Shown in pieces: positions 1,163 through 63,946 of a stretch of 64,000 bases of DNA. The position numbers were made by a program, and so were the translations under genes. The notes beneath the pieces were generated by a model. It was not told the origin of the DNA. It saw only the letters and a list, made by a program, of their open reading frames with translations, and made no database searches. This DNA comes from Polaribacter butkevichii (GTDB lineage: Bacteria > Bacteroidota > Bacteroidia > Flavobacteriales > Flavobacteriaceae), in the NCBI RefSeq assembly GCF_038024105.1, contig NZ_CP150661.1:1445001-1509000 (forward strand), in the 5' to 3' direction. The first letter of the stretch is position 1. Each line of letters opens with the position of its first letter.

Positions 1163-2046
1163 AAAATATTAATGACATTTTCGATTTTCTAACAGGTAAT
1201 CTTCCTGCATTGGAAAATACTGACGAGGGAGACATTCCATTAATTTATGGCACTTCATTTAATAATGGAGTTATCAAACTAGTTGAAGTCGAGAGCGAAG
1301 AAAACATTTTTCAACCTCCATTAATAACAGTTTCTTATTTAGGTACTGCATTTGTTCAAATACTTCCATTTACAACTTCTGTAGTAGATAAGAGTAATAT
1401 AATTATTCTTAAACCCAAGAATAAAATGACTTTATCTGAATTGTATTTCTACTGCTTTCAAATTAACACAACTGCTAAATTCGGTTTCCATTATGGGAGA
1501 CGAATGAATATGGCTAGACTACGAAAGGTAAACGTATTGGAGTATGATAAGAGTAAATACGAAACAAAAATAGATATTAAAGGCTTGTTACCTCAAATCC
1601 AATTAGATGAATATTACAAGATAAATTTACTCAATAAGTTTTTAGACATTAATAAAATATTTGATGTAGTAAATGCGAAATCAAGTGGATTTAGTTCCTA
1701 CGATATTGGGGAAATTCCATTTATTTCAAATGGAATAATGAATAATGGAATAATAGGTTATGTTTCTCCATTAGACACTGATAGAGTTTTTAACAAAAAA
1801 GGAATTTGTGTTTCTGCATTTTGTGAAGCAACTATACATAACCCTCCTTTTTTACCGAGAGGAAATGGAGGAAGTGGATTAATAGTTTTAATTCCCAAAA
1901 AAGAAATGACTCACGAAGTTTTTGTTTACTATGCTGCTTATATAAATAAATATTGTAGTTGGAGATTCTCTTATGGCAGAATGGTAACATTGGCTAGATT
2001 AAAAAAGATGGAACTTCCAGAAATAACTACACCCAACAATGTATAA
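1159..2046 (+). CDS. hsdS: Restriction-modification specificity subunit (HsdS-like)
   Basis: Probable DNA-recognition partner of the upstream methylase. The 295 residues consist of two similar halves, each with an IP(L/F)I-type strand, a NNG(V/I)I motif and a closing (F/Y)GR followed by a (M/L)ARL(R/K)K motif (near residues 112-121 and 273-282). This is the duplicated target-recognition layout of type I S subunits, although the usual long coiled coil is short here. The stop codon lies inside the following junction site: the last residues PNNV are encoded by the site itself. It starts four bases inside the methylase gene. Confidence 0.8.
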   Translation: MKNINDIFDFLTGNLPALENTDEGDIPLIYGTSFNNGVIKLVEVESEENIFQPPLITVSYLGTAFVQILPFTTSVVDKSNIIILKPKNKMTLSELYFYCFQINTTAKFGFHYGRRMNMARLRKVNVLEYDKSKYETKIDIKGLLPQIQLDEYYKINLLNKFLDINKIFDVVNAKSSGFSSYDIGEIPFISNGIMNNGIIGYVSPLDTDRVFNKKGICVSAFCEATIHNPPFLPRGNGGSGLIVLIPKKEMTHEVFVYYAAYINKYCSWRFSYGRMVTLARLKKMELPEITTPNNV

Positions 2047-2162
2047 AAATAATAGCGGTTTAATCGCTAAAATGAAAGTAAGTAAATATAAAAAAGGTCT
2101 GTGTTTAACCGAAAAGTTAGTGTGTTTTAATCCGCTACTATTCTTATACTAGACCGTTGGCA
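2031..2162 (+). repeat. attC-like cassette junction site 0
   Basis: Left core ACCCAAC ends the methylase cassette, and right core GTTGGCA starts the next. Inner arms GTATAA/TTATAC pair, followed by AATAGCGG against CCGCTACTATT. This is an atypical subtype without the usual GGAA-type central hairpin. Confidence 0.7.
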
Positions 2163-2197
2163 AACATTTTGACCAAACCCAAAACTGAAAGAAAAAA

Positions 2198-2704
2198 TTG
2201 AAAGCTGAATTTATTTACCAACCTACTTCTGGAGAATATGAAGAGAAAACTTTTGACTTAAATACAGTTTGGAAAAGTCAAATTTGGAGTTGGACAAAAT
2301 TCACAACAAAAGACGGAATTGAATGGATTGGAGCTTTTCGTGGAGAACCAAAGAAAACTGTAATTGCGGAAAAAATAAATCAAGTGGCTGTTTTGACAAG
2401 TGATGGACTTTATATATTGGATATTGACAAAAGAGAAACTCTCTTTTTTGACCAACAAACTGAATTTAGAGAATTAGCCGAATTACCAACAAAGGACAAA
2501 TTCATTATTGCGGATTATGACCAAATTGGAATTATTGACAAAGATTTTAAAACAAAATATCTAAATCTCGATTTCGGAATTGACAATATTGTGTTTAGAA
2601 ATTATATCGGAACGAAATTGAGAATTAATTTTGAGAAACTACCTGATTATGATATAATAGATGGAGTTTTGAATACTGAAAACTGGAAAATTGAGACGGA
2701 ATAA
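2198..2704 (+). CDS. Hypothetical protein, 168 aa
   Basis: I do not recognise this protein. It starts with TTG 42 bases after the cassette's right core. It has no signal peptide or membrane segment and reads as a soluble beta-rich protein, with alternating hydrophobic strands around AVLTSDGLYILDID and FIIADYDQIGIIDKD. Acidic content and small size are reminiscent of immunity-type proteins, but there is no specific motif. It is the only gene of its cassette, whose ends GTTGGCAAA and TTTGCCAAC are complementary. Confidence 0.7.
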   Translation: MKAEFIYQPTSGEYEEKTFDLNTVWKSQIWSWTKFTTKDGIEWIGAFRGEPKKTVIAEKINQVAVLTSDGLYILDIDKRETLFFDQQTEFRELAELPTKDKFIIADYDQIGIIDKDFKTKYLNLDFGIDNIVFRNYIGTKLRINFEKLPDYDIIDGVLNTENWKIETE

Positions 2705-2713
2705 AAAACGATT

Positions 2714-2848
2714 TGCCAACACCGTGTATAATTAATTGCTTTGGCAAGTGCTTATTTGGAAAATTCCTTCGGAATTTTCTCGCGTTCGTTTTTGTTTACT
2801 AAATTAGTTGCTTAAACACGCAACTAACCATACACAATCACGTTGGCT
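2714..2848 (+). repeat. attC-like cassette junction site 1
   Basis: Left core TGCCAAC, right core GTTGGCT. Inner arms GTGTAT/ATACAC; central hairpin GAAAATTCC/GGAATTTTC. Confidence 0.85.
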
Positions 2849-2878
2849 GTAATTAAAAACCGAAATCAAAATTAACAT

Positions 2879-3472
2879 ATGAAATTAAAAAGAAATTTAT
2901 TTACAATTCTATTTTTGACAATTAGTGCAATTGGAATTGCGCAAGATTATAAAAATGAACTGAAAAAGGAATTTAATGATTATTTGAGTACAATTGTAAA
3001 TATGGAATTTGAAAAATCTATGGAATATATTGTTCCTGAATTTTTTGAAATTATTCCGAAATCGCAAATGATTAAGGTTATGAAAATGACTTTTAACAAT
3101 CCAGATATGGAATTTGAAATAAAAAATCCAAAAATCTTGAAAGTTAATGACAAAAAGGAAATTGAAAAGAAATATTATTCACTTCTGACTTATTCAAATC
3201 AAATGAATATGAAAATAAAAGGAGAAGAAGGAGAAACAAAAGACGAAAAAACAACGAGAATAAACTTGACTAAATTGTCATTGGAAAGCACTTTTGGTTC
3301 TGAAAATGTCGTTTATAACGAAAAAACTGATTTTTTTGAAATTCAGTCTCAAAAAGACGTTTATGCAATTTCTGAAAGTGGAGAAAAAAACTGGAAATTT
3401 TTAGTAATTGAAAAGAAACAGAAGATGATTTTGGAAAAATTACTACCAAAAGAATTGAGTGAAAAAATATAA
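2879..3472 (+). CDS. Secreted hypothetical protein, 197 aa
   Basis: The N-terminus is a signal peptide (basic start, hydrophobic core FTILFLTISAIGIAQ, likely cut after AQ), so the protein should be periplasmic or exported. The mature part is helical and lysine/glutamate-rich, with no catalytic motif I can name. It is the single gene of a cassette whose ends GTTGGCTGTA and TACAGCCAAC are exact reverse complements over 10 bases, one of the clearest examples in the window. The ATG lies 37 bases after the core. Confidence 0.8.
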   Translation: MKLKRNLFTILFLTISAIGIAQDYKNELKKEFNDYLSTIVNMEFEKSMEYIVPEFFEIIPKSQMIKVMKMTFNNPDMEFEIKNPKILKVNDKKEIEKKYYSLLTYSNQMNMKIKGEEGETKDEKTTRINLTKLSLESTFGSENVVYNEKTDFFEIQSQKDVYAISESGEKNWKFLVIEKKQKMILEKLLPKELSEKI

Positions 3473-3481
3473 AAAAACTAC

Positions 3482-3615
3482 AGCCAACACCATATATAAT
3501 TTATTGCTAGCTTTTTGCTTACTTACGAAAATCCTCGCGGATTTTCTTTGTTAGTAATTATTTACTAAATTAAGTGCTTAAACCACGCAACAAACCATAT
3601 ATAAATACGTTAGCC
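3482..3615 (+). repeat. attC-like cassette junction site 2
   Basis: Left core AGCCAAC, right core GTTAGCC. Inner arms ATATAT/ATATAT; central hairpin GAAAATCC/GGATTTTC. Confidence 0.85.
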
Positions 3616-3648
3616 ACAATTTAAAAAAACACGAAATTCAAGAGAATT

Positions 3649-4128
3649 ATGCTTAAATATTTAACATTCGGAATATCAATATCATTTATATCGTGGATAG
3701 TCGGAATGATAATTAATAGTATTCTTGTCAAAACTGAATACTACATAAAAATATCAAATCTGAATTTTATTGAAAGTAAATCTTTAAATAAAACTATTGG
3801 AATTGACTATTTTAAATGGATTGTGAAAAATTCATTTTTCAAGTTTTTTAATCAGAAAATAAAATTGAAAAATAAAAAAACGGAATTGACTGAAATACGA
3901 AAGGAAATGACAATTGCGGAAATAAGCCATTTAATCGGATTTATATTCGTGACTTTCTTTGCTGTTTATAAAAGTATTACTCACGACTTTTTATTTGGTC
4001 TGATAATAATGATTGTGAATATATTTATGAATTTATATCCTACTTTATTACAACAGGAAAACAAAAGACGAATTGACCCAATAATAAAACGACAAAAAAA
4101 AACTGTGGCTAACACCGCGTATAATTAA
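3649..4128 (+). CDS. Membrane protein, possibly CrtO-like acyltransferase fold, 159 aa
   Basis: The protein has an N-terminal membrane helix (about residues 4-25) and a hydrophobic pair near residues 95-130. The stretch EISHLIGF followed by NIFMNLYPTLLQQENKRR resembles the E..H ... N.YP..LQ..NR pattern of small membrane proteins related to glycosyl-4,4'-diaponeurosporenoate acyltransferase. This assignment is by eye and tentative. Its C-terminal residues ANTAYN are encoded by the following junction site, so the tail depends on which site follows the gene. Cassette ends: GTTAGCCACA and TGTGGCTAAC. Confidence 0.7.
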   Translation: MLKYLTFGISISFISWIVGMIINSILVKTEYYIKISNLNFIESKSLNKTIGIDYFKWIVKNSFFKFFNQKIKLKNKKTELTEIRKEMTIAEISHLIGFIFVTFFAVYKSITHDFLFGLIIMIVNIFMNLYPTLLQQENKRRIDPIIKRQKKTVANTAYN

Positions 4129-4240
4129 TTGCTTGTTTTAAGACTACTTACGAACATTCCTGCGGAATATTCTATCTGTGATTTATTTGCTAACTTAGTT
4201 CCTTAAATCACGCAACTAACCATACACAATCACGTTGTGC
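4107..4240 (+). repeat. attC-like cassette junction site 3
   Basis: Left core GGCTAAC, right core GTTGTGC. Inner arms GCGTAT/ATACAC (one wobble); central hairpin around ATTCC/GGAAT. Confidence 0.82.
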
Positions 4241-4281
4241 CCAATTAAAAAAATCCGTTACATTAAAGAAATATAATTAAA

Positions 4282-4317
4282 TGATTGTATCTTTGATAAT
4301 ATCAAATGATAGTATCA
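4282..4317 (+). promoter_or_regulatory. Promoter -7 box with repeated operator before fic gene
   Basis: A Bacteroidota-type -7 box TATCTTTG (4288-4295) lies 25 bases before the ATG at 4321. Two perfect 5-1-5 palindromes, TGATAATATCA (4294-4304) and TGATAGTATCA (4307-4317), lie 13 bases apart, preceded by a degenerate copy TGATTGTATCT at 4282. The arrangement suggests autorepression, perhaps by the Fic protein's C-terminal winged helix. The motifs are seen; the role is inferred. Confidence 0.55.
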
Positions 4318-4320
4318 CGA

Positions 4321-5292
4321 ATGAAACCACCTTACGAAATAACATCTTCAATTTTAAAATTAATAACTTCTATTTCAGAAAAAATAGGTGAAGTAAACGC
4401 TAACTTATTAAACAAACCTTCTCCTAAATTAAGAAAACAGAACAGAATTAAAACAATTCATTCCTCTCTAAGAATTGAAGGAAATACACTTACAGAAGAA
4501 CAAATAACAGCACTTCTTGAAAACAAAAGAGTTATTGGTCCAAAAAAAGATGTTGTTGAAGTTTTAAATGCAATAGAAATCTACGAGAATTTAGATATTT
4601 ACAAACCATCTAATGAAAAGTCATTTTTAAAAGCACATAAAAGCTTAATGAAAGGCCTTGTTGAAGATGCAGGAACATATAGGAAACAAAGTGTTGGAAT
4701 TGTAAAAGGCACTAAAGTAGAACATGTAGCTCCACCTTTTGGAAACCTTCCATACTTAATGAAAGACCTTTTTGAATATTTAAAAAAGTCAGACGAAATT
4801 GAGTTAATTAAAAGTTGTGTTTTCCATTATGAAATGGAGTTTATACATCCATTTTTAGATGGTAATGGAAGAATGGGAAGATTATGGCAAACTCTAATAT
4901 TAATGGAAAAATATCCAATATTTGAATTTTTACCTTTTGAAACTTTAATTAGTAACGATCAAGAAAAATATTACCAGGCTTTAGCTGAAAGTGATAAATC
5001 TGGAAAATCAACAAAGTTTATTGAATATATGTTAGGAGTAATTGATATTTCAATAAGTGAATTATTGAATTTCAATAATCGAACATTAAATGAAAAAGAC
5101 AGATTAGAATATTTTGTTTCTTTAAATAAAATTCAATTTACTAGAAAAGATTATATGGATATATTTAAAGATATTTCTGCTGCAACTGCAAGTCGAGATT
5201 TGAAAAAAGGAACAGAATTAAAAATATTTGAGAAAACAGGAAAACTAAATAAAACAATATACAAACTAATAACTGGGCACAACACCGTATAA
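4321..5292 (+). CDS. Fic family protein with C-terminal winged-helix region
   Basis: Probable AMP-transferring (Fic domain) enzyme that modifies hydroxyl groups on target proteins. The active-site motif HPFLDGNGRMGR begins at residue 176 (canonical HxFx(D/E)GNGRxxR), and the N-terminal inhibitory motif SLRIEGN matches S/TxxxE(G/N), making it an autoinhibited class II Fic. The last 60 residues (QFTRKDYMDIF...ATASRDLKK) look like a winged-helix DNA-binding domain. I chose ATG 4321 (MKPPYEIT is the usual start of this subfamily) over ATG 4306, which lies inside the operator palindromes. The final residues NTV come from the junction site. Cassette ends: GTTGTGCCCA/TGGGCACAAC. Confidence 0.93.
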   Translation: MKPPYEITSSILKLITSISEKIGEVNANLLNKPSPKLRKQNRIKTIHSSLRIEGNTLTEEQITALLENKRVIGPKKDVVEVLNAIEIYENLDIYKPSNEKSFLKAHKSLMKGLVEDAGTYRKQSVGIVKGTKVEHVAPPFGNLPYLMKDLFEYLKKSDEIELIKSCVFHYEMEFIHPFLDGNGRMGRLWQTLILMEKYPIFEFLPFETLISNDQEKYYQALAESDKSGKSTKFIEYMLGVIDISISELLNFNNRTLNEKDRLEYFVSLNKIQFTRKDYMDIFKDISAATASRDLKKGTELKIFEKTGKLNKTIYKLITGHNTV

Positions 5293-5409
5293 ACTTTATT
5301 GCTAGTTTTAGCTCACTTGGGAAATTCCTTCGGAATTTCGCCGTTCGTGTTTTATTTACTAAATTCACTGATTAAACCACGCAACAAAGCTTATACAACA
5401 ACGTTGCAA
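5277..5409 (+). repeat. attC-like cassette junction site 4
   Basis: Left core GCACAAC, right core GTTGCAA. Inner arms GTATAA/TTATAC extend further (CTTTATTGC against GCAACAAAG); hairpin GAAATTCC/GGAATTTC. Confidence 0.87.
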
Positions 5410-5774
5410 GTAATTGGCGGAAACCACTCAGACACTTGAAATTTGCGGTTCAAAACTCTTGAATTTAAAAACGGAAAAAAGCTAGACACTCTCTCGTTCG
5501 GCAAAATTTGTAAAATTGGAGAGTTTTAGCAATTTAATCAAAATGAATTTACTCAATCCCTGAAAATCCAAAATTGCGGAATTTAGCAAAATGCCGGAAT
5601 TTTCACTCAAACCCTGAATTTAATAAGTTTGCGGAATTTAGCAAAACACGAAAAATCTAGAGCGCGAAATTCACTCAAACCTTGAATGACAAACTTGGCG
5701 GAATTACCACTCAAACGTTGAATTTTGAAAATGAAAAAGTGCTACAAACTGAAAAAAAACCAACTACTTGCAAC
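5403..5774 (+). mobile_element. Noncoding cassette, family A copy 1
   Basis: A 372-bp cassette with ends GTTGCAAGTA and TACTTGCAAC and no credible reading frame. It contains ACTCTCTCG followed about 25 bases later by GGAGAGTTT (a possible stem), then four or five degenerate units of the type ACTCAAAC..TGAATTT..GCGGAATT. It appears identical to the copy at 33379 and nearly identical to the other family A copies, all carrying the same downstream site. Confidence 0.8.
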
Positions 5775-5902
5775 ACCGTTTATAAAAAATTGCTAAATTG
5801 TGCCTTATCAAAACTAGTCGCGTTTTTGTAAACCCCTATTTTCCTGCGGAAAATAGCCGTTCACTTTTAAACGCAACTTTCCCATAAACAACAACGTTAC
5901 CA
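5768..5902 (+). repeat. attC-like cassette junction site 5
   Basis: Left core TTGCAAC, right core GTTACCA. Inner arms GTTTAT/ATAAAC; hairpin CTATTTTCC/GGAAAATAG. Confidence 0.85.
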
Positions 5903-5907
5903 CACAT

Positions 5908-6609
5908 TTGAGAAAAACGCTTTTCATATCGACAATTTTAGTTTTGAATTCATTCTTTTCGTTTGCCCAAAACAGAATTGAATTAGTTACGAATGATTGT
6001 AGTCAAGAAAATGGATTTACAATGTTTTTATTGGATAGAGCTAAACCGAAAATTCTAACTGAACAAAAATTTGAACAAGAAGAAAAATATTGGAATAGCC
6101 AAAAGAAGATTTTACTCAATAATTCGGACATTATTAAAATAGAATACACGAATATTTTTGGACAGATAATCGACACAACTTTCACAAACGCAAAGGAACT
6201 GAATGAAATAAAAATCTGTGTAAATAAATTCAAAGATTACGAAAATAAATCTCTAATAAAAGAATCAATCGAAAATAATGAAAGTTGGATTTTGAATAGA
6301 ACTTGGGGACATCAAACTTTTGAATCTGACAAACTGATTTTAAAACCTAAAAACGGATTTTTAAAATATAAATATTATAAAAACGGAAAAAGAATAAAAC
6401 GTGGAAAAATAAAAATAACAGAATCCATCATAGAAAAAATAGCATTGTTTGAGCGTAAACTGAATCTAATGCAAAATGCTGACAATTCCTGTAATTTCGG
6501 AATCAATTATAATCTTAACAATGGAATTGAAAAGTTGAATTTTCAAGACGACAGTTGTTCTGGGTTTTCGAATGAACAATTATTGTCTGAATTAAAAATA
6601 ACGGAATAA
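5908..6609 (+). CDS. Secreted hypothetical protein, 233 aa (duplicated cassette, copy 1)
   Basis: The start is TTG five bases after the right core; the signal peptide LFISTILVLNSFFSFAQ follows immediately, supporting this start. The mature protein has no motif I recognise: two cysteines (CSQE; DSCSGFS) and a conserved-looking NRTWGHQTFESDKLILK stretch. The DNA appears identical to 58784-59485, including the downstream site up to GTT, while the upstream sites differ, so a whole cassette was copied. Cassette ends: GTTACCACAC/GTGTGGTAAC. Confidence 0.8.
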   Translation: MRKTLFISTILVLNSFFSFAQNRIELVTNDCSQENGFTMFLLDRAKPKILTEQKFEQEEKYWNSQKKILLNNSDIIKIEYTNIFGQIIDTTFTNAKELNEIKICVNKFKDYENKSLIKESIENNESWILNRTWGHQTFESDKLILKPKNGFLKYKYYKNGKRIKRGKIKITESIIEKIALFERKLNLMQNADNSCNFGINYNLNNGIEKLNFQDDSCSGFSNEQLLSELKITE

Positions 6610-6618
6610 AAAAACGTG

Positions 6619-6753
6619 TGGTAACAACGTGTATAAAAAATTGCTATATTTAGCATAAACTAAAACTTGTTGCTCTTTTGCAAACTTCTGAATTTCCTCC
6701 GGAAATTCCTCGTTCACAAAACCGCAACTTTCCATAACACAACAACGTTGGCA
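6619..6753 (+). repeat. attC-like cassette junction site 6
   Basis: Left core TGGTAAC, right core GTTGGCA. Inner arms GTGTAT/ATAACAC with one bulge; hairpin GAATTTCC/GGAAATTC. Same sequence as the site at 59495 apart from the right core. Confidence 0.83.
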
Positions 6754-7298
6754 AAAACTGGGCGAAAGTATAATCCGCAAGTAAAAGTTCTTTTAAAAAC
6801 ATTTAGCTTTAAAGTCTGAAAACTCAAAAAAGCGAAATAAAACGTTTGAAAAATTAGTTTTTCGGAACACTCTCTCGCGAATCAAAATTTTGAAAAGTTG
6901 GAGAATTTTCTAAATTTCACAAAAAAGGAATTTACTCAAATGCTGAAACCAAGATTACGGAGAAATCACTCAAATGTGAATTTCTAAACTTTGCGGAATT
7001 GAGCAAAATGCGGAACAAAAACTGTGCGGAATTTTCTCTTAAACAAAGTTTCGTAAGGCTGAGAATTTTCTGAAAATTAAATTAAGTGAAAATTATTGTC
7101 GGAATTAAGCACGTGGGAAAACACTCAAACGCTGAAAATCAAAGTTGCGGAATTTTTACTCGGAATTTAATTTATCAAGTTTGCGGAATTGGAAATGCCT
7201 GAAAAATGGAATTTAATGAAATTACTACTTGTAAATTAAAAATAACCCGAAATATGAACAAAATATGAAAATTGAAATAAAATAACGCATTTGCCAAC
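6747..7298 (+). mobile_element. Noncoding cassette, family C copy 1
   Basis: A 552-bp cassette with ends GTTGGCAAA and TTTGCCAAC. It has the ACTCTCTCGCGA element and several GCGGAATT / ACTCAAAC units, with stops in all frames. It looks identical to 61022-61573. Compared with the family C copies at 11082, 22286 and 27376, the cores are GGC instead of GCC, and the opposite end has changed to match. Confidence 0.8.
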
Positions 7299-7424
7299 AC
7301 CTTGTATAAAAAATTGCTAAATTTGGCTTAATCAAGGTTTGTTGCATTTCTGTCAACTCCTATTTTCCTGCGGAAAATAGCCGTCGACTTAAAACGCAAC
7401 TTTCCATACAAAACAACGTTGCAA
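7292..7424 (+). repeat. attC-like cassette junction site 7
   Basis: Left core TGCCAAC, right core GTTGCAA. Inner arms TTGTAT/ATACAA; hairpin CTATTTTCC/GGAAAATAG. Confidence 0.85.
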
Positions 7425-7790
7425 GTAATTGGCGGAAACCACTCAGACACTTGAAATTTGCGGTTCAAAACTCTTGAATTTAAAAACGGAAAAAAGCTAG
7501 ACACTCTCTCGCTCGGCAAAATTTGTAAAATTGGAGAGTTTTAGAAATTTAATCAAAATCAATTTACTCAAACCTTGAGAACCCCAAATTGCGGAATTTA
7601 GCAAAATGCCGGAATTTTCACTCAAACCCTGAATTTAGCAAGTTTGAGGAATTTAGCAAAACACGAAAAATCTAGAGCGTGAAATTCACTCAAACCTTGA
7701 ATGACAAACTTGGCGGAATTACCACTCAAACGTTGAATTTTGAAAAATAAAAAAGTGCTACAAACTGAAAAAAAACCAACTACTTGCAAC
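7418..7790 (+). mobile_element. Noncoding cassette, family A copy 2
   Basis: A 373-bp family A unit that looks identical to the copy at 14598 and differs from copy 1 by a few substitutions (for example GCTCG for GTTCG in the ACTCTCTCG element). No credible gene. Confidence 0.8.
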
Positions 7791-7918
7791 ACCGTTTATA
7801 AAAAATTGCTAAATTGTGCCTCATCAAAACTAGTCGCGTTTTTGTAAACCCCTATTTTCCTGCGGAAAATAGCCGTTCACATTTAAACGCAACTTTCCCA
7901 TAAACAACAACGTTGGCA
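7784..7918 (+). repeat. attC-like cassette junction site 8
   Basis: Left core TTGCAAC, right core GTTGGCA. Inner arms GTTTAT/ATAAAC; hairpin CTATTTTCC/GGAAAATAG. Confidence 0.85.
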
Positions 7919-55975: not shown

Positions 55976-55983
55976 AATACTGT

Positions 55984-56736: not shown

Positions 56737-56845
56737 GTAATAGCGGAAAAAACTCTTGCATTCAAATAATTTGTGGTTTGAAACTCTAAAATTTTACGAT
56801 TATTAAATATTGAAAAAAATTACTTAAACACAATAAAGAAGAACT

Positions 56846-57245: not shown

Positions 57246-57378
57246 TTGCAACACCTTGTATAAAAAATTGCTTAATTTGGCTTAATCAAAAGTTTGTGTT
57301 TTCTTATAAACTTCATTTTTCCTGCGGAAAAATGCCGCTCATTTAAAACGCAAATTTCCATACAAAAACACGTTGCAA
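57246..57378 (+). repeat. attC-like cassette junction site 62
   Basis: Left core TTGCAAC, right core GTTGCAA. Inner arms TTGTAT/ATACAA; hairpin CATTTTTCC/GGAAAAATG, a compensated variant of CTATTTTCC/GGAAAATAG. Confidence 0.86.
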
Positions 57379-57875
57379 AAAACTGGCTGAAAGTATAATT
57401 TTGGAACAAAAGTTATTTTAAAATATATTTTGTTTTACAAGTTAGAAAACTCAAAAGGCGGAAAAAAGTTTGAAAAAATTAGTTTCGGAACACTCTCTCG
57501 AGATTGGAAAATTCTGAAAGAATTTTATTAATAATTAGTGTTTCAGAACGTTGAAAAAGTTGATCAAATTTAACTAGTTTGAAAATTAGTAAAAACTTGA
57601 AACTTATTTACTGTTTGAAAAGATAATTAAGCAAAGTGTTGAATAAATGTTGGTGGAATTAACTCTCAAACACAATTTTAGAAAGGCTGAGAGATTTAGA
57701 GAACAAACAAAAAGGTTTACTCGCTTTCGGAATTAAATGCGCCTGAAAACACGAAAAAACTAAAATTGAGAAACTGAATAAATTGCGGAATTAAAATATT
57801 GTCGGAATTTACTCTCAAACTCAAAAAATAGAAATTGAAAACATAAAAACGAAAATTAAACCCGCATTTTGCAAC
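57372..57875 (+). mobile_element. Noncoding cassette, family I copy 1
   Basis: A 504-bp cassette with ends GTTGCAAAA/TTTTGCAAC, nearly identical to 63317-63820. The shared element reads ACTCTCTCGAGATTGG. It has fewer ACTCAAAC units than other families. No credible gene. Confidence 0.76.
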
Positions 57876-58001
57876 ACCTTGTATAAAAAATTGCTTAATT
57901 TGGCTTAATCAAAGTTTGTTGCATTTTTGTAAACTTCTGAATTTCCGTTGGAAATTCCTCGTTCACAAAACCGCAACTTTCCATACAAAACAACGTTCTA
58001 C
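57869..58001 (+). repeat. attC-like cassette junction site 63
   Basis: Left core TTGCAAC, right core GTTCTAC, the only core here with C at position 4. Inner arms TTGTAT/ATACAA; hairpin GAATTTCC/GGAAATTC. Confidence 0.85.
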
Positions 58002-58006
58002 ACCAT

Positions 58007-58621
58007 TTGAAACAAACATTCGTCATAGCATTAATATTAGTAATCGGAATAGTTTCTGGCTGTAAAAATAATAACACTATGAATTCAAAAAATATGTCTG
58101 AATTACCAAAGTTTAAATACCAACCGAACGCAATCGAATTGGGAATAATTGAAAAGAAAAATATTGATTGTCCAGTTTGTGAGAAAAATAGAGACTATGC
58201 ATACTCTGGCGGAATTTACGCTGTCGAAGAAGTTGAATTTATTTGTCCTTGGTGTGTTGCGGACGGAAGCGCAGCCGAAAAATACGATGGAATGTATGTT
58301 GACGATGCTTCTTGCGAAGAAGTTTCTGACCAAAATAAACTGACTGAATTGGTTACGAAAACACCAAATTATGTGAGTTGGCAACAAGAAGTTTGGCTTG
58401 CACATCACGATGATTATTGTTCATTTGAGAAATATGTTGGCTGGAAAGAAATTGAACATCTGAAAGAAAATTTATCAGACGATATTGAAAGAATTAAATC
58501 GGAATATGGATTATCGCAGTCGGAATTTGAGCAATATTTAGTAAATGATGGCGGAATGCAAGGTTATTTATTTAAGTGTTTACATTGCGACCAACATCGA
58601 TTACATATCGACACGAATTAA
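58007..58621 (+). CDS. CbrC family (UPF0167) protein with lipoprotein signal, 204 aa
   Basis: The mature part matches the CbrC family: LPKFKYQPNAIELGIIE, CPVCEKNRDYAYSGGIYAVEEVEFICPWCVADGSAAEKYDG, then VSWQQEVWLAHHDDYCSF. The two CxxC pairs suggest metal binding. The family is named for colicin E2 tolerance in E. coli; the molecular role is unclear. Unusually, this copy begins with a hydrophobic leader ending in a lipobox (LVIGIVSGCKNN) directly after a TTG start, whereas CbrC proteins are normally cytoplasmic. Cassette ends: GTTCTACACC/GGTGTAGAAC. Confidence 0.87.
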   Translation: MKQTFVIALILVIGIVSGCKNNNTMNSKNMSELPKFKYQPNAIELGIIEKKNIDCPVCEKNRDYAYSGGIYAVEEVEFICPWCVADGSAAEKYDGMYVDDASCEEVSDQNKLTELVTKTPNYVSWQQEVWLAHHDDYCSFEKYVGWKEIEHLKENLSDDIERIKSEYGLSQSEFEQYLVNDGGMQGYLFKCLHCDQHRLHIDTN

Positions 58622-58643
58622 TAAAAATCGGAATAAAAACGGT

Positions 58644-58778
58644 GTAGAACAACGTGTATAATTAATTGCTTTGGCAAGTGCTTATTTGGAAAATTCCTTC
58701 GGAATTTTCTCTGGCACGTATTTGTTTACTAATTTAGTTGCTTAACCACGCAACTAATCATACACAACAACGTTACCA
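58644..58778 (+). repeat. attC-like cassette junction site 64
   Basis: Left core GTAGAAC, complementary to the unusual GTTCTAC core at the start of this cassette; right core GTTACCA. Inner arms GTGTAT/ATACAC; hairpin GAAAATTCC/GGAATTTTC. Confidence 0.87.
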
Positions 58779-58783
58779 CACAT

Positions 58784-59485
58784 TTGAGAAAAACGCTTTT
58801 CATATCGACAATTTTAGTTTTGAATTCATTCTTTTCGTTTGCCCAAAACAGAATTGAATTAGTTACGAATGATTGTAGTCAAGAAAATGGATTTACAATG
58901 TTTTTATTGGATAGAGCTAAACCGAAAATTCTAACTGAACAAAAATTTGAACAAGAAGAAAAATATTGGAATAGCCAAAAGAAGATTTTACTCAATAATT
59001 CGGACATTATTAAAATAGAATACACGAATATTTTTGGACAGATAATCGACACAACTTTCACAAACGCAAAGGAACTGAATGAAATAAAAATCTGTGTAAA
59101 TAAATTCAAAGATTACGAAAATAAATCTCTAATAAAAGAATCAATCGAAAATAATGAAAGTTGGATTTTGAATAGAACTTGGGGACATCAAACTTTTGAA
59201 TCTGACAAACTGATTTTAAAACCTAAAAACGGATTTTTAAAATATAAATATTATAAAAACGGAAAAAGAATAAAACGTGGAAAAATAAAAATAACAGAAT
59301 CCATCATAGAAAAAATAGCATTGTTTGAGCGTAAACTGAATCTAATGCAAAATGCTGACAATTCCTGTAATTTCGGAATCAATTATAATCTTAACAATGG
59401 AATTGAAAAGTTGAATTTTCAAGACGACAGTTGTTCTGGGTTTTCGAATGAACAATTATTGTCTGAATTAAAAATAACGGAATAA
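58784..59485 (+). CDS. Secreted hypothetical protein, 233 aa (duplicated cassette, copy 2)
   Basis: The translated protein is identical to that at 5908: TTG start, signal peptide LFISTILVLNSFFSFAQ, and the NRTWGHQTFESDKLILK stretch. The identity extends from the core GTTACCA through the closing site to the next GTT and stops there, while the upstream site is a different subtype. This pair defines the copied unit very precisely. Confidence 0.8.
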   Translation: MRKTLFISTILVLNSFFSFAQNRIELVTNDCSQENGFTMFLLDRAKPKILTEQKFEQEEKYWNSQKKILLNNSDIIKIEYTNIFGQIIDTTFTNAKELNEIKICVNKFKDYENKSLIKESIENNESWILNRTWGHQTFESDKLILKPKNGFLKYKYYKNGKRIKRGKIKITESIIEKIALFERKLNLMQNADNSCNFGINYNLNNGIEKLNFQDDSCSGFSNEQLLSELKITE

Positions 59486-59494
59486 AAAAACGTG

Positions 59495-59629
59495 TGGTAA
59501 CAACGTGTATAAAAAATTGCTATATTTAGCATAAACTAAAACTTGTTGCTCTTTTGCAAACTTCTGAATTTCCTCCGGAAATTCCTCGTTCACAAAACCG
59601 CAACTTTCCATAACACAACAACGTTAGCA
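59495..59629 (+). repeat. attC-like cassette junction site 65
   Basis: Left core TGGTAAC, right core GTTAGCA. Body the same as the site at 6619; arms GTGTAT/ATAACAC; hairpin GAATTTCC/GGAAATTC. Confidence 0.83.
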
Positions 59630-59648
59630 ATAATTAACAAGAAACATC

Positions 59649-60443
59649 GTGACTAAAGAAAAACACCTTTATCGAATATTATTTCTTGCTTCAATATTCC
59701 TATTGTTGATTAACGATTTATACTTGAAATTTGAATATCATAATTATCTAACTGGAAAACTTTCTGATTTTGTTGGACTTTTTGCTTTTCCATATTTTTT
59801 CAGTTGTTTCTTTCCAAAAAAGATAAAGCCTATTTACATTTTGAGCGGGCTTTTGTTTGTCTTTTGGAAATCGGAATTTTCACAACCGATATTTGATTTT
59901 GCTCTCTCAAACGGAATTGGAATAAATCGAACAATAGATTATTCTGATTTAATTGCTTTATTGGTTCTACCATTTTCATATGTCTATTGGAATTCGGAAT
60001 CTAAATCTTTGTTTAAAGCAACGAAAAAATTAAAGCCAATAATTATCGGAATAAGTTGCTTTGCATTTATTGCAACTACTCTACCTAAACATTACGAAAA
60101 ATTATCTATGAAATCGGAATTTTCGACTATTGTTAGTTCTGATAAACAATCTGTAAGAACACAACTTCAGATATACAAAGAAGGAATGTTTGCACAAGAT
60201 AACTATCGAATTGAAATGTCTGGAAAAAATGCTCATATTTTAACTTCTATAAAAGTAGATTCTATAAATGAACAGACGACAAGAGTTTCTTTGGACAGTA
60301 TATTAAGTTTTACTGTTGAGGGAAATGGATTTCTATTTAGTAGCGGAATTGACAAAGATGACGTTGAATATATTAGAAAATTAAGTAAAAATGAAATTGA
60401 GCAATTGTTTTCAAAACAAATAAAAAAGGAATTTGAAAATTAA
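59649..60443 (+). CDS. Five-span membrane protein with LTGKLSDF motif, 264 aa
   Basis: The GTG start at 59649 follows the core by 20 bases. The N-terminal part has about five helices and the conserved-looking NYLTGKLSDFVGLFAFPYF motif, which recurs in a family of uncharacterised bacterial membrane proteins. The C-terminal third is an exported soluble domain (YRIEMSGKNAHILTSIKV). The function is unknown. Cassette ends: GTTAGCAATA/TATTGCTAAC. Confidence 0.78.
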   Translation: MTKEKHLYRILFLASIFLLLINDLYLKFEYHNYLTGKLSDFVGLFAFPYFFSCFFPKKIKPIYILSGLLFVFWKSEFSQPIFDFALSNGIGINRTIDYSDLIALLVLPFSYVYWNSESKSLFKATKKLKPIIIGISCFAFIATTLPKHYEKLSMKSEFSTIVSSDKQSVRTQLQIYKEGMFAQDNYRIEMSGKNAHILTSIKVDSINEQTTRVSLDSILSFTVEGNGFLFSSGIDKDDVEYIRKLSKNEIEQLFSKQIKKEFEN

Positions 60444-60450
60444 TAACTAT

Positions 60451-60582
60451 TGCTAACACCATATATAATTTATTGCTAGTTCTAGCCTACTTACGAAAAT
60501 CCTCGCGGATTTTCTATTCGGTTTTTATTTGCTAAATTAGGTGTTTAAAACACGCAACAAACCATATACAAACACGTTGGGT
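60451..60582 (+). repeat. attC-like cassette junction site 66
   Basis: Left core TGCTAAC, right core GTTGGGT. Inner arms ATATAT/ATATAC (one mismatch); hairpin GAAAATCC/GGATTTTC. Confidence 0.84.
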
Positions 60583-60901
60583 TTAATGCAAAAAGTCATT
60601 GCAAAACCACAAGTTCAAGCTTAAAAACAGAAGTCCATTAAGTCTGATTTCTAAAAATGTTCACGAGGAATTTGAGCCAATTACGGAAAATAAAACTGTG
60701 AACTTTCAGCAAGTTTACGGAATCGATACGCTGACAAAAATTACGACTGACTTTTGACTTGGTTTACGCAGTAGAAATCTGAAAAAGAACAGATCGCTGA
60801 AATTCACTTTTGCGGAATTTAGCCAGTTTGCGGATTTGAAAAATATTGCGGACTGAAAAAACAACTGAATAAAATCGTACAAAAAAGCACTAAAACCCAA
60901 C
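60576..60901 (+). mobile_element. Noncoding cassette, family J (single copy)
   Basis: A 326-bp cassette with ends GTTGGGTTTA and TAAAACCCAAC (complementary over the core with a one-base slip). It has GCGGAATT and AGCAAGTTTACGGAAT words but lacks a clear ACTCTCTCG element. No credible gene. Confidence 0.68.
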
Positions 60902-61028
60902 AACGCATAAAAAAAATTCCTATTTTGGGCTTGCATTATGGTCGTTGCTTTGCTTGTTCGCTTCTGATTTTCCTACGGAAAATCGCCGCGCACAAACACG
61001 CAACTTTTCTTATGCAAAACCGTTGGCA
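60895..61028 (+). repeat. attC-like cassette junction site 67
   Basis: Left core ACCCAAC, right core GTTGGCA. Inner arms GCATAA/TTATGC, a compensated variant found only here; hairpin GATTTTCC/GGAAAATC. Confidence 0.86.
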
Positions 61029-61573
61029 AAAACTGGGCGAAAGTATAATCCGCAAGTAAAAGTTCTTTTAAAAACATTTAGCTTTAAAGTCTGAAAACTC
61101 AAAAAAGCGAAATAAAACGTTTGAAAAATTAGTTTTTCGGAACACTCTCTCGCGAATCAAAATTTTGAAAAGTTGGAGAATTTTCTAAATTTCACAAAAA
61201 AGGAATTTACTCAAATGCTGAAACCAAGATTACGGAGAAATCACTCAAATGTGAATTTCTAAACTTTGCGGAATTGAGCAAAATGCGGAACAAAAACTGT
61301 GCGGAATTTTCTCTTAAACAAAGTTTCGTAAGGCTGAGAATTTTCTGAAAATTAAATTAAGTGAAAATTATTGTCGGAATTAAGCACGTGGGAAAACACT
61401 CAAACGCTGAAAATCAAAGTTGCGGAATTTTTACTCGGAATTTAATTTATCAAGTTTGCGGAATTGGAAATGCCTGAAAAATGGAATTTAATGAAATTAC
61501 TACTTGTAAATTAAAAATAACCCGAAATATGAACAAAATATGAAAATTGAAATAAAATAACGCATTTGCCAAC
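61022..61573 (+). mobile_element. Noncoding cassette, family C copy 5
   Basis: A 552-bp unit that looks identical to 6747-7298, about 54 kb away. Ends GTTGGCAAA/TTTGCCAAC. Confidence 0.8.
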
Positions 61574-61699
61574 ACCTTGTATAAAAAATTGCTAAATTTG
61601 GCTTAATCAAGGTTTGTTGCATTTCTGTCAACTCCTATTTTCCTGCGGAAAATAGCCGTCGACTTAAAACGCAACTTTCCATACAAAACAACGTTGGGC
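61567..61699 (+). repeat. attC-like cassette junction site 68
   Basis: Left core TGCCAAC, right core GTTGGGC. Inner arms TTGTAT/ATACAA; hairpin CTATTTTCC/GGAAAATAG. Confidence 0.85.
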
Positions 61700-61753
61700 A
61701 TAATTTGACGCAACCTATTTGGAATTTATTCATCTATTCTAAAAAGAACAATA

Positions 61754-62560
61754 ATGAGAAAACTGACACTAATAATCCTATCCATAATTATATTTAGTTG
61801 TAATACGAATGATGAGGGGACAAATGAAACAGAATATTCTGAATTTATTACGGGAAACTTAATTGAAACTGAAATAAATTTTATGGCAGAGGAAATATAT
61901 ACAACTAATGAAACTCAAGAACCAATTTTAAAACTAAAATTAATCAGTTCTGAAATTTTCCCTTGTGTAAACTATACTTTATCTACAACCGAATTTATAA
62001 AGGGAAATGAACTAATTATAAGGTTTGATGAAATAATTGAACCAGAAATTTGTTTAACCGCACTTGGATCCGCCATTTCTTATATTGACTTACCTCTAAA
62101 CACAAATAAATTAACTTTTATAAATGGAAATACAATTGATAAATATTCAATTGACATTAACGAACAAAAAATATCTGTAACGCACATCGAAAATAATTTT
62201 ACAACTTCATTATACAATAAAACTTTTAGGATTCCTGAAAATTCATTTGCCTATGTTTGCGGAACTAATACAAATAACACAAATATTTATAAAGATTTTT
62301 CAGCGATTATAGAACAAAATCCTGACTTCATAGAATTTGAATTTGACGGAGAAGGAAGAATTCCTTATCCTGAGACAACCGATGGAAATTGGGTCAATCA
62401 CCCTTCTAAATATTATAAATACACAGAATCAGTCGAATTTAACAGTTTAGCTGACATATTGAATGATTATTCTTCACAGAATATCGAAGAAAATTCTGGA
62501 GTTACAATTTCAATTTATAGTTGGAATAATATCAAATTTTATAGCTGGATTGAAAATTAA
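61754..62560 (+). CDS. Lipoprotein of unknown function, 268 aa
   Basis: The signal peptide ends in a lipobox (ILSIIIFSCNTND, cysteine 17). The mature part is threonine/asparagine-rich and beta-like (KLKLISSEIFPCVNYTLSTT and FEFDGEGRIPYPETTDGNW), consistent with a surface or periplasmic lipoprotein. No family is recognised. The leader of about 60 bases after the core is longer than most. Cassette ends: GTTGGGCATA/TATGCCCAAC, the same cores as the TIR-protein cassette. Confidence 0.78.
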   Translation: MRKLTLIILSIIIFSCNTNDEGTNETEYSEFITGNLIETEINFMAEEIYTTNETQEPILKLKLISSEIFPCVNYTLSTTEFIKGNELIIRFDEIIEPEICLTALGSAISYIDLPLNTNKLTFINGNTIDKYSIDINEQKISVTHIENNFTTSLYNKTFRIPENSFAYVCGTNTNNTNIYKDFSAIIEQNPDFIEFEFDGEGRIPYPETTDGNWVNHPSKYYKYTESVEFNSLADILNDYSSQNIEENSGVTISIYSWNNIKFYSWIEN

Positions 62561-62568
62561 AAAACTAT

Positions 62569-62701
62569 GCCCAACACCGTATAAACTTTATTGCTGGTTA
62601 TAGCTCACTTGGGAAATTCCTTCGGAATTTCGCCGTTCGTGTTTTATTTAGTAAATTCACTGCTTAAACAACGCAACAAAGCTTATACAACAACGTTGTA
62701 A
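62569..62701 (+). repeat. attC-like cassette junction site 69
   Basis: Left core GCCCAAC, right core GTTGTAA. Inner arms GTATAA/TTATAC; hairpin GAAATTCC/GGAATTTC. Confidence 0.86.
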
Positions 62702-63196
62702 AAAACTACTGAATCGCGCCAGAAACAAATAATTTATTTTAAATTAACTTTTGGCTTTTAAGTTTGAAAACCTAAATGTTGGAGAATAAATTTTCAGAAA
62801 TATGGAACACTTTCTCGCGAGTGAAAAATTCTCTAAATTGGAAAGTTTGAGAAATTTAATAAAAAAGTTTTACTCAAACGCTTGAGAACCCAAATTGCGG
62901 AATTCTTACTCAACCTCTGAATTTATAAAGTTTGAGGAATTCAGTAAAACACTAAAAAAAGGTCTTGCAAAATTGGAGAATTTTAGTATTTAAAAAATAA
63001 TTTACTCAAACTCTGAAAACCAAAATTGCGGAAAAAAAATAAAAATGCTGGAATTCTTACTCAAACGATAAATTTGGAAATTTAGTAAAACACCAAAAAT
63101 CAGAATTGCTGAATTAATTCTGATAAAATAAAAATTGAATTAGTAGAAGCTGAAAAAAACCAAAACTATGGAAAAATTAAATACGCATTTTACAAC
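62695..63196 (+). mobile_element. Noncoding cassette, family G copy 2
   Basis: A 502-bp unit close to 32087-32600, with ends GTTGTAAAA/TTTTACAAC and the element ACTTTCTCGCGAGT. No credible gene. Confidence 0.78.
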
Positions 63197-63323
63197 AACT
63201 TGTATAAAAAATTGCTACTTTTAGCTTAAACAAAGGCTGTTGCATTTTTGTAAACTTCTGAATTTCCGTTGGAAATTCCTCGTTCACAAAAATCGCAACT
63301 TTCCATACAAAAATACGTTGCAA
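63190..63323 (+). repeat. attC-like cassette junction site 70
   Basis: Left core TTACAAC, right core GTTGCAA. Inner arms TTGTAT/ATACAA; hairpin GAATTTCC/GGAAATTC. Confidence 0.85.
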
Positions 63324-63820
63324 AAAACTGGCTGAAAGTATAATTTTGGAACAAAAGTTATTTTAAAATATATTTTGTTTTACAAGTTAGAAAACTCAAA
63401 AGGCGGAAAAAAGTTTGAAAAAATTAGTTTCGGAACACTCTCTCGAGATTGGAAAATTCTGAAAGAATTTTATTAATAATTAGTGTTTCAGAACGTTGAA
63501 AAAGTTGATCAAATTTAACTAGTTTGAAAATTAGTAAAAACTTGAAACTTATTTACTGTTTGAAAAGATAATTAAGCAAAGTGTTGAATAAATGTTGGTG
63601 GAATTAACTCTCAAACACAATTTTAGAAAGGCTGAGAAATTTAGAGAACAAACAAAAAGGTTTACTCGCTTTCGGAATTAAATGCGCCTGAAAACACGAA
63701 AAAACTAAAATTGAGAAACTGAATAAATTGCGGAATTAAAATATTGTCGGAATTTACTCTCAAACTCAAAAAATAGAAATTGAAAACATAAAAACGAAAA
63801 TTAAACCCGCATTTTGCAAC
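63317..63820 (+). mobile_element. Noncoding cassette, family I copy 2
   Basis: A 504-bp unit nearly identical to 57372-57875. Ends GTTGCAAAA/TTTTGCAAC. Confidence 0.76.
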
Positions 63821-63946
63821 ACCTTGTATAAAAAATTGCTTAATTTGGCTTAATCAAAGTTTGTTGCATTTTTGTAAACTTCTGAATTTCCGTTGGAAAT
63901 TCCTCGTTCACAAAACCGCAACTTTCCATACAAAACAACGTTGTAC
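63814..63946 (+). repeat. attC-like cassette junction site 71
   Basis: Left core TTGCAAC, right core GTTGTAC. Inner arms TTGTAT/ATACAA; hairpin GAATTTCC/GGAAATTC. Last site in the window. Confidence 0.85.

What the first reader, a model, noticed from the sequence alone, without database searches (positions are those of the whole stretch)
2031..63946. Superintegron-like array of 72 sites in a Bacteroidota genome
Every gene or gene-free unit is bounded by a junction site, and each unit begins and ends with its own complementary bases: GTTGGCTGTA...TACAGCCAAC, GTTGTGCCCA...TGGGCACAAC, GTTCTACACC...GGTGTAGAAC and so on. The pairing is between the two ends of one cassette, not across one site, which is what integron cassettes show after linear integration of a circle. 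Virtually all genes point the same way. Integrons are well described in Proteobacteria (Vibrio superintegrons) and are rare or absent in Bacteroidota as far as I know, so this may be a new lineage of the system or an independent one.
Basis: partly seen in the sequence, partly recalled or inferred. Interest (0 to 1): 0.96.

Follow-up and report, generated by a model that had tools for sequence, protein, structure and literature searches.

The report
Integron-like cassette array without integron integrase
A bacterium related to Polaribacter carries about 120 gene-sized DNA cassettes in a row beside a recombinase that likely captures and reshuffles them as integrons do, although it lacks an insert that every integron integrase measured here has; matching sites turn up in 261 of 299 genomes searched in its family.

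Summary
Confirmed, and larger than the window: 119 co-oriented ~125-bp sites span 114 kb of a Polaribacter-group genome, 71 in the window. Each cassette's ends pair with each other, not across a site (109 of 115 match at 6-7 of 7 variable bases; re-dealt pairs average 3.1). The site stem covaries, and the bottom strand folds better than the top in 259 of 259 reconstituted sites from four arrays. A 384-aa tyrosine recombinase lies directly upstream, then a conserved attI-like junction whose first cassette usually differs between species. Identical cassettes at different places break at the GTT core. The recombinase is no IntI: below the family cut-off and without its ~42-residue insert. Such sites occur in 261 of 299 Flavobacteriaceae genomes; relatives across the class often head arrays with paired ends (16 of 28 loci), including a Bacteroides array with the published features of rAID, whose gene-gaining mechanism is open. 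I read this as an integron-like system run by an insert-less recombinase, sister to or source of classical integrons. Recombination was not tested.

The parts
1..64000 (+). Part of a 114-kb cassette array (whole array G000:C1 1434130-1547954, i.e. from 10.9 kb before to 39 kb behind the window), all its sites on + strand. Outside the window, upstream: 384-aa tyrosine recombinase (L009:7488-8642, G000:C1 1432488-1433642, +, 3' end facing the array) and the attI-like junction (GTT core at G000:C1 1433676, with TATATTTG 22 bases before it)
101..2046 (+). 3' part of a restriction-modification cassette (methyltransferase and specificity subunits)
2035..2158 (+). cassette site, divergent (58 bits)
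2718..2844 (+). cassette site
3486..3611 (+). cassette site; bottom strand of 3471-3624 folds at z -4.16 against shuffles
4111..4236 (+). cassette site
4306..5292 (+). cassette gene: Fic family (PADLOC SoFic)
5281..5405 (+). cassette site
5772..5898 (+). cassette site
6623..6749 (+). cassette site
7296..7420 (+). cassette site
7788..7914 (+). cassette site
8312..8437 (+). cassette site
9203..9327 (+). cassette site
10100..10224 (+). cassette site
10958..11084 (+). cassette site
11603..11727 (+). cassette site
12387..12511 (+). cassette site
13249..13371 (+). cassette site interrupted near its right end by an IS110-family element
13405..14397 (-). IS110-family transposase of the element inserted in that site
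14968..15094 (+). cassette site
15973..16097 (+). cassette site
16680..21905 (+). large multi-gene cassette: TonB-dependent receptor, FUR-type regulator, phospholipid-methyltransferase-like protein, P-type ATPase
22101..22288 (+). cassette site, longer variant
22806..22930 (+). cassette site
23380..23506 (+). cassette site
23819..23945 (+). cassette site
24398..24524 (+). cassette site
24922..25047 (+). cassette site
26001..26120 (+). cassette site, divergent (38 bits)
26570..26696 (+). cassette site
27254..27378 (+). cassette site
27897..28021 (+). cassette site
29541..29665 (+). cassette site
30399..30525 (+). cassette site
31389..31511 (+). cassette site
31963..32089 (+). cassette site
32598..32723 (+). 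cassette site
33256..33381 (+). cassette site
33748..33874 (+). cassette site
34187..34313 (+). cassette site
34340..35623 (+). cassette gene: TIR domain with pentapeptide repeats
35632..35754 (+). cassette site
36704..36827 (+). cassette site
39327..39453 (+). cassette site
40416..40541 (+). cassette site
41075..41198 (+). cassette site
41650..41776 (+). cassette site
42434..42558 (+). cassette site
43362..43485 (+). cassette site
43937..44063 (+). cassette site
44935..45061 (+). cassette site
45429..45555 (+). cassette site
46138..46262 (+). cassette site
46715..46841 (+). cassette site
47404..47530 (+). cassette site
48089..48214 (+). cassette site
48931..49968 (-). second IS110-family transposase; its element abuts the left arm of the site at 50114-50242
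50114..50242 (+). cassette site whose left end does not fit the consensus, next to the IS110-family element
50898..51023 (+). cassette site
51711..51835 (+). cassette site
52381..52506 (+). cassette site
52904..53029 (+). cassette site
53655..53781 (+). cassette site
54448..54573 (+). cassette site
55260..55384 (+). cassette site
55988..56111 (+). cassette site
56608..56732 (+). cassette site
57250..57374 (+). cassette site
57873..57997 (+). cassette site
58648..58774 (+). cassette site
59499..59625 (+). cassette site
60455..60578 (+). cassette site
60899..61024 (+). cassette site
61571..61695 (+). cassette site
62573..62697 (+). cassette site
63194..63319 (+). cassette site
63818..63942 (+). 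cassette site

Best explanation
This is an integron-like cassette array headed by a tyrosine recombinase without the integron-specific insert, which is predicted to insert, excise and reorder circular gene cassettes at folded single-stranded sites. Shown by sequence: recombinase gene, then a conserved attI-like junction, then a run of co-oriented cassettes; nearly every cassette is bounded by its own pair of complementary ends; the site has a conserved, covarying stem; identical cassettes occur at different places with breaks at the GTT core. Inferred: a cassette circle carries one site; its bottom strand folds into a long hairpin (R stem of about 10 bp, unpaired spacer, L stem, large terminal part); the recombinase joins it to the attI-like junction or to another site at or next to the GTT. 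Strand choice is likely written as A.C mismatches of the top strand, which become G.T wobble pairs on the bottom strand. A TATATTTG in the junction is a candidate promoter for the first cassettes (the consensus is recalled, not tested).
For: Own-end pairing 109 of 115 at 6 or more of 7, against 3.11 mean for re-dealt tails; again in G040 (32 of 35), G053 (96 of 100) and a second cluster of the same genome (28 of 31). Stem covariation: 97.8% of cells paired against 29-43% when slid; 117 cells with both sides changed against 39.6 shuffled. Bottom strand more stable in 259 of 259 reconstituted sites (200 of 200 distinct; kept by a filter on length and on 5 or more of 7 paired bases out of 271 with both boundaries), mean -5.4 kcal/mol; random 150-mers of the region 65 of 150. 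Adjacency: of 48 recombinase loci 38 hold at least 1400 bp of 3' flank, and 30 of these 38 have a site there on the same strand; no site lay upstream or on the other strand within the 1.5 kb held. In 299 Flavobacteriaceae genomes the recombinase (E <= 1e-60) is in 161 of 261 with sites and 7 of 38 without, Fisher p 7.7e-7 (tallied by hand from the printed lists). Junction: 55 bp before GTT (about 19 of them gene end) 70% identical on average among 18 loci, the 7 bases after it 44%, 16 different first heads. Identical cassettes at new places end 0-2 bases after the next GTT in nine of nine comparisons, two of which share one block. Of 119 cassettes 19 are shared with G040, none of them clearly coding.
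Against: No recombination, circle or single-strand step was observed. 8 of 38 recombinase loci show no site within 1.5 kb (in three of them sites lie further off on the same contig), and 10 of 48 were cut by a contig end. 100 of 261 family genomes with sites have no recombinase at E <= 1e-60. L025 and L075 show no GTT junction behind the recombinase. The closest genome's recombinase frame looks broken in its assembly. The single-strand route is argued from fold energies alone, and only one classical attC was folded beside them (no strand difference).
Confidence: 0.86

Rival explanations
1. It is an ordinary integron whose IntI lost its insert: a derived member of the classical family.
For: Same architecture; recombinase and IntI form one clade apart from 15 XerC/XerD-type sequences at 100/100; integrases transcribed toward the array are known in Treponema integrons (PMC3607928, passages). 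[quoted passage not shown]
Against: The IntI sampled form one clade of their own (100/100) and the insert-less recombinases do not fall inside it; the array recombinase is below the IntI cut-off (209.4 of 265 bits); cassette heads fit GTTRRRY in only 13 of 149.
Confidence: 0.1
2. The array is a cluster of sites without its own enzyme, moved by the host's XerC/XerD or a distant integrase; the adjacent recombinase is unrelated to it.
For: 100 of 261 family genomes with sites have no recombinase at E <= 1e-60; two Xer-type recombinases exist in this genome.
Against: Same-strand adjacency in 30 of 38 loci and none upstream; conserved junction beside the recombinase where first cassettes differ; paired ends beside relatives across the class.
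Confidence: 0.05
3. The sites are MITE-like repeats or insertion-sequence ends scattered between genes.
For: Sites resemble each other and IS110-family elements insert into them.
Against: Variable ends pair within each unit and not across a site; a repeat family would not carry a different 7-base code at each unit; the sites of the array have one orientation (one lone site on the other strand lies 9 kb before the array).
Confidence: 0.02

Closest known systems
Integrons (class 1, Vibrio superintegrons; IntI, attI, attC)
   Same: Recombinase beside an attI-like junction, long co-oriented array of mostly unknown genes, cassette-specific paired ends, hairpin site with two boxes, unpaired spacer and large terminal part, break at a GTT core.
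   Different: Recombinase lacks the ~42-residue insert (motif spacing 65 against 107 residues); R box about 10 bp and not GTTRRRY; strand asymmetry shows in fold energy (one classical attC shows none); recombinase points toward the array; no IntI over the cut-off in this genome.
Treponema-type integrons
   Same: Integrase transcribed toward attI in the cassette direction (PMC3607928, passages).
   Different: Those use IntI (the paper calls the gene intI; insert not checked here).
rAID systems of Bacteroidales (recombinase-associated acquired interbacterial defence)
   Same: Predicted tyrosine recombinase, co-oriented short genes, conserved intergenic motifs (PMC12247911, passages). The B. ovatus locus examined has a related recombinase (41%) and own-end pairing.
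   Different: That locus holds immunity genes with gaps of mostly 40-80 bp and a TTA core; this array is far longer, mostly of unknown genes, with ~125-bp sites and a GTT core.
XerA / XerC / XerD recombinases
   Same: Catalytic fold; best Foldseek match is XerA (4.0e-16) with IntI4 next among families (1.1e-15).
   Different: The XerC/XerD-type sequences sampled form their own clade (100/100); their chromosome-dimer role is recalled.
CALINs and attC sites reported in phages
   Same: Polaribacter phage P12002L was reported to carry attC sites; attC2 was recombined by IntI1 from the bottom strand, with no top-strand recombinants (PMC9892861, passages). The phage holds four matches to this site model at E <= 2.2e-4.
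   Different: Whether the tested attC2 is one of these four was not checked.

Membership tests
Integron | Integrase is IntI (TIGR02249 over its curated cut-off of 265 bits) | tested here: not met
   209.4 bits as a protein; no match over the cut-off in the whole genome
Integron | IntI-specific additional domain in the catalytic part | tested here: not met
   GKGxKxR to HxLRH spacing 65 residues in the 20 of 40 array recombinases that match both motifs, 107 in the 19 of 20 IntI that do; the window genome's recombinase measures 65 (row L174), and its alignment to IntI4 splits at that place
Integron | attI-like primary site beside the integrase | tested here: met
   conserved stretch ending at GTT in 18 loci, first cassettes mostly differ; function not tested
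Integron | Array of co-oriented cassettes bounded by own complementary ends | tested here: met
Integron | attC core GTTRRRY / RYYYAAC | tested here: not met
   GTTR in 148 of 149 distinct heads, GTTRRRY in 13 of 149, four arrays pooled
Integron | attC hairpin with R and L boxes, unpaired spacer, terminal structure | tested here: met
Integron | Extrahelical bases in the L stem that set strand choice | tested here: inconclusive
   conserved unpaired columns exist, but on the bottom strand several read as G.T wobbles; no assay
Integron | attC found by the standard attC covariance model | not testable with these tools
   IntegronFinder is not available; IntegronFinder 2.0 reported no integrons in Tenacibaculum larymnensis (PMC10013915, passages), a genome in which I did not look for these sites
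Integron | Integrase-dependent cassette excision and integration | not testable with these tools
   needs an experiment
CALIN | No integrase next to the site cluster | tested here: not met
   recombinase 0.5 kb before the first site
rAID | Related tyrosine recombinase, co-oriented genes, conserved intergenic motifs | tested here: met
rAID | Array consists of orphan immunity genes | tested here: not met
   40 window proteins scanned: 27 without a Pfam match at E <= 0.001; of the other 13 none is named an immunity family; the 27 could still hide some
XerC/XerD | Groups with chromosomal XerC/XerD | tested here: not met
   separate clades at 100/100; below the XerC and XerD cut-offs

The most novel reading that the evidence does not exclude
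Bacteroidota hold a whole second branch of integrons that work without the IntI insert, reaching from 100-kb superarrays in Flavobacteriaceae to the small rAID defence arrays of gut Bacteroides; the classical integron integrase arose from within this branch, so that the insert is a later addition and not what made cassette recombination possible.
Probability: 0.33. Interest if true: 0.96.

Novelty: new variant of a known kind. Interest (0 to 1): 0.88.

Why it matters
Integrons are defined by IntI, and its extra domain is held to be essential for integron recombination (PMC8138268 and PMC9668308, passages). Here is an array of the same logic, with 119 sites, headed by a recombinase without that domain, and with its sites in 261 of 299 genomes sampled from one large bacterial family. 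If it recombines, the domain is not needed for the trick, tools built on IntI and attC models are likely to miss a large cassette pool, and rAID arrays of gut Bacteroides gain a candidate mechanism for collecting immunity genes, which their students call an area of active research (PMC12247911, passages). It also makes the origin of integrons testable: the recombinase tree puts IntI next to or inside these enzymes.

Tried and rejected
Rfam at gathering thresholds: 0 matches in the window. Phage collection by DNA similarity with one site: no match, although the covariance model later found four sites in one Polaribacter phage. A link to SOS genes: an XRE/S24 gene, a pol-IV-like gene and a DnaE-like gene lie upstream of the recombinase, but tblastn found none of the three at E <= 1e-20 in 19 other recombinase loci; the control search found all three in their own locus, and at 1e-5 two short DnaE-like fragments appeared beside the recombinases of L158 and L161, so the link is not general. 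Promoters in the gene-free cassettes: TAnnTTTG 1.12 per kb on + against 0.94 on -, 0.67 and 0.85 in the others, so no clear enrichment. A loose chain finder for arrays outside the family gave chains in shuffled DNA too (up to 7) and its reverse-strand control is void because the pattern is its own reverse complement; it was replaced by an exact rule. Monophyly of the insert-less recombinases is not rejected (AU p 0.303), so the nesting of IntI (86/97) is only a lean. Structure: AlphaFold2 model pLDDT 80.2, pTM 0.49, too weak in domain placement to argue from; Foldseek and VIA-align put XerA, IntI4, XerH and archaeal Xer close together. Ten literature searches listed no paper whose title or shown abstract describes such arrays in Flavobacteriaceae or calls rAID an integron; the library holds open-licence papers only, and the paper that first described rAID is not held, so an earlier remark may exist. 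Rows dropped: one search left out 3 of 118 cassettes; one search kept 259 of 271; one search left out 4 of 32 fetched class loci (L204, L210, L213, L217) because the contig ended; one search used 18 of 21 junction loci (L025 shows none, L033 and L070 were missed by the search pattern though a junction can be seen). The first 12 of the 28 class loci were picked partly because sites or long contigs were known: 8 of 12 have exact pairs; of the later 16, 8 of 16.

Full report
What is there. The window is G000:C1 1445001-1509000 of a single-contig genome of 4,079,563 bases. Named loci that share the recombinase at 73-85% are Polaribacter, Tenacibaculum and one Winogradskyella MAG. Sites of about 125 bp (AACACCGTGTATAATTAATTGC ... 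GCAACTAACCATACACAACAACGTT) were modelled and counted: 119 on the + strand from 1434130 to 1547954, 71 of them in the window. One lone site on the other strand lies at 1425432-1425556, before the array.

Ends of a cassette pair with each other. Over 115 cassettes, positions 4-9 counted from the start of GTT match the cassette's other end in 85-98% of cases, position 10 in 70%, and position 11 in 2%; 109 of 115 match at 6 or 7 of the 7 bases tested. Across one site, or with tails re-dealt, the figure is that of chance (3.12 and 3.11 of 7). The same holds in G040 (32 of 35), G053 (96 of 100) and a second cluster of 32 sites in this genome at 2025367-2053470 (28 of 31).

The site is a folded one. 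On 53 non-redundant sites RNAalifold gives a 13-pair stem, 8 pairs with changes on both sides. Against controls: 97.8% of cells pair (29-43% when the partner is slid by 1-3 columns), covariation score 0.428 (0.038-0.115 slid; 0.111 shuffled). The structure was derived from the same sites, which favours it over the slid versions on cells paired. Conserved mismatches of the top strand are of the A.C kind (R stem position 11: tail C with head A in 242 of 259), which become G.T wobbles on the bottom strand. Put together as in a circle, the bottom strand is the more stable in 259 of 259 sites, by 5.4 kcal/mol on average; random 150-mers of the region show no such bias (65 of 150). One classical attC, that of an aadA2 cassette, gave -25.2 and -25.5. 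In integrons too the bottom strand is the substrate, with strand choice set by extrahelical bases (PMC2727003, passages); here the asymmetry looks differently built. That it serves strand choice is inference.

The recombinase. A 384-aa tyrosine recombinase (L009:7488-8642) ends 0.49 kb before the first site and points toward the array. Pfam: Phage_integrase and two SAM-like domains. NCBIfam: XerA-type 217 of 220 bits, IntI 209.4 of 265, XerD 190 of 330, XerC 188 of 335: no cut-off is met. The distance from GKGxKxR to HxLRH is 65 residues in the 20 of 40 array recombinases that match both motifs and 107 in 19 of 20 IntI; in the class-wide set it is 64-70 where measured. So the IntI insert is absent. 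IntI1 is 33% identical over two thirds of the protein.

The junction. Behind the recombinase, 18 loci share a stretch ending in or near ATATAACC.GTT: 55 bp (about 19 of them gene end) are 70% identical on average, the 7 bases after GTT 44%, which is the chance level (3.11 of 7), and there are 16 different first heads in 18 loci. TAnnTTTG lies 22 bases before GTT in 14 of 18; it is the Bacteroidota -7 promoter consensus as I recall it. L025 and L075 show no such junction.

Movement. Cassettes identical over 372-1050 bases lie at different places: within the array (730, 739 and 663 bases) and between array and second cluster (1050, 565+647, 513, 372). In nine of nine comparisons identity ends 0-2 bases after the next GTT on the right and starts 1-11 bases before GTT on the left, within shared site sequence (two comparisons share one block). 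Among 290 cassettes of the four arrays 156 are singletons at 80% identity and length. With G040, whose recombinase region is 91% identical in DNA, 19 of 119 cassettes are shared; 18 of these have no ORF of 80 aa and the partner of the last has none either; homology at the head stops at the junction. With G053 3 of 119 are shared, all without an ORF of 80 aa.

Contents. 48 of 119 cassettes have no ORF of 80 aa. Of 40 window proteins scanned 27 have no Pfam match; the others include Fic, TIR with pentapeptides, TonB receptor, P-type ATPase, S41 peptidase, TPR, DUF4145 and UPF0167. PADLOC names a methyltransferase, a specificity subunit, SoFic and weak TIR matches among 10 proteins scanned.

Spread. 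Site model matches: 92 of 97 genomes of the genus sample, 261 of 299 of the family in 183 of 203 genera, 16 of 197 of the class, 13 of these 16 outside the family. Only the best 36, 11 or 17 candidates per genome were scored, so site numbers per genome are floors. Recombinase: 68 of 97 at E <= 1e-40 in the genus, 168 of 299 at 1e-60 in the family, 109 of 197 for the profile at 1e-60 in the class. A second tier of recombinases (37-44% identical) also heads arrays: in 10 of 11 loci examined sites lie downstream on the same strand; in the other (L162) the contig ends 0.13 kb behind the gene. Outside the family, 46 exact own-end pairs (GTT, 7 bases, position-11 A with C) lie behind 16 of 28 recombinase loci against 1.52 expected from shuffles; 147 kb of other real DNA gave none. 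Several of these arrays have sites of other sequence.

rAID. The B. ovatus locus on NZ_CP081918.1 has a recombinase 41% identical over 257 residues, followed by SMI1/KNR4, Imm26, PoNi-like and Tdi1-domain immunity genes among others, all co-oriented: the published features of rAID (PMC12247911, passages). Its gaps carry the same logic: by an automatic rule 8 of 12 heads match the next gap's tail at 5 of 5 bases, against 2 of 144 other pairings. So rAID arrays look like small relatives of this system. That reading is mine, from one locus.

Descent. In a tree of 56 recombinases, insert-less ones plus IntI stand apart from 15 XerC/XerD-type sequences, E. coli's included, at 100/100; IntI is one clade (100/100) placed among the insert-less ones (86/97), but holding the latter together is not rejected (AU p 0.303). 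Phage and other transposon integrases were not included. So 'sister or source' is what the data allow.

Verdict. It works, by anatomy, like an integron, but fails two defining tests of one (IntI with its insert; GTTRRRY core). I file it as a new variant of a known kind. Shown: anatomy, adjacency, covariation, duplicates and turnover between species. Not shown: recombination, circles, single-strand route, promoter.

Noticed in passing
window 13371-14397, 48931-49968; L010:624, L012:16948, L094:8470: IS110-family elements sit in cassette sites: one kind at the same point of the right arm in three sites of the main array and one of the second cluster, another kind at the left arm (two copies in the array, three matching stretches in G040). 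Recalled: IS1111-type elements target attC of integrons.
   Followed up: partly
window 5406-5771, 7421-7787, 23507-23818 and others: 48 of 119 cassettes hold no ORF of 80 aa; several families of 312-552 bp recur many times, with degenerate internal motifs of the kind ACTCAAACGTTGAATTT...GCGGAATT. What they do is unknown; no promoter enrichment was seen.
   Followed up: partly
L222 (Bacteroides ovatus NZ_CP081918.1): A rAID-like locus shows own-cassette end pairing with a TTA core.
   Followed up: partly
L247:14503-14624, 31118-31313, 32224-32280, 32798-32924: Polaribacter phage P12002L holds four matches to the site model, three of them around its methyltransferase genes.
   Followed up: partly
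L144 and L223 (Chryseobacterium plasmid NZ_CP041688.1): A plasmid carries a recombinase of this kind (42% identical) with weak site matches (31 and 29 bits) behind it, and an IS110 and a group II intron reverse transcriptase nearby.
   Followed up: partly
L145:872-994 and 1580-1705 (Flagellimonas plasmid NZ_CP092416.1): Two site matches (99 and 30 bits) flank a dihydrofolate-reductase-family gene on a mobilizable plasmid that also carries erm(F) and a related short recombinase.
   Followed up: no
L146 (Acinetobacter plasmid NZ_CP104735.1): The recombinase fragment next to tet(X3) (called TnpF in another record) groups with the insert-less recombinases, closest to one from another family of the class.
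   Followed up: partly
L009:1518-6695: DnaE-like, pol-IV-like and XRE/S24 genes lie just upstream of the recombinase; short DnaE-like fragments also lie beside the recombinases of L158 and L161, but no such genes were found at E <= 1e-20 in 19 other loci.
   Followed up: partly
G000:C1 2025367-2053470, L200:3663-3786 and 4849-4969, L009:432-556 (minus): Further sites in the same genome: a cluster of 32, two more near 878 kb, and a lone inverted one. One search found only one recombinase match at E <= 1e-40 in this genome, the one at the main array, so the 32-site cluster seems to have none of its own.
   Followed up: partly
G040:C1 1546648-1547800: The recombinase of the closest genome is split into two reading frames in its assembly.
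   Followed up: no
10 of 48 recombinase loci: Assemblies break within 0.6 kb behind the recombinase, as expected if repeated sites follow; such arrays are probably under-reported in draft genomes.
   Followed up: yes
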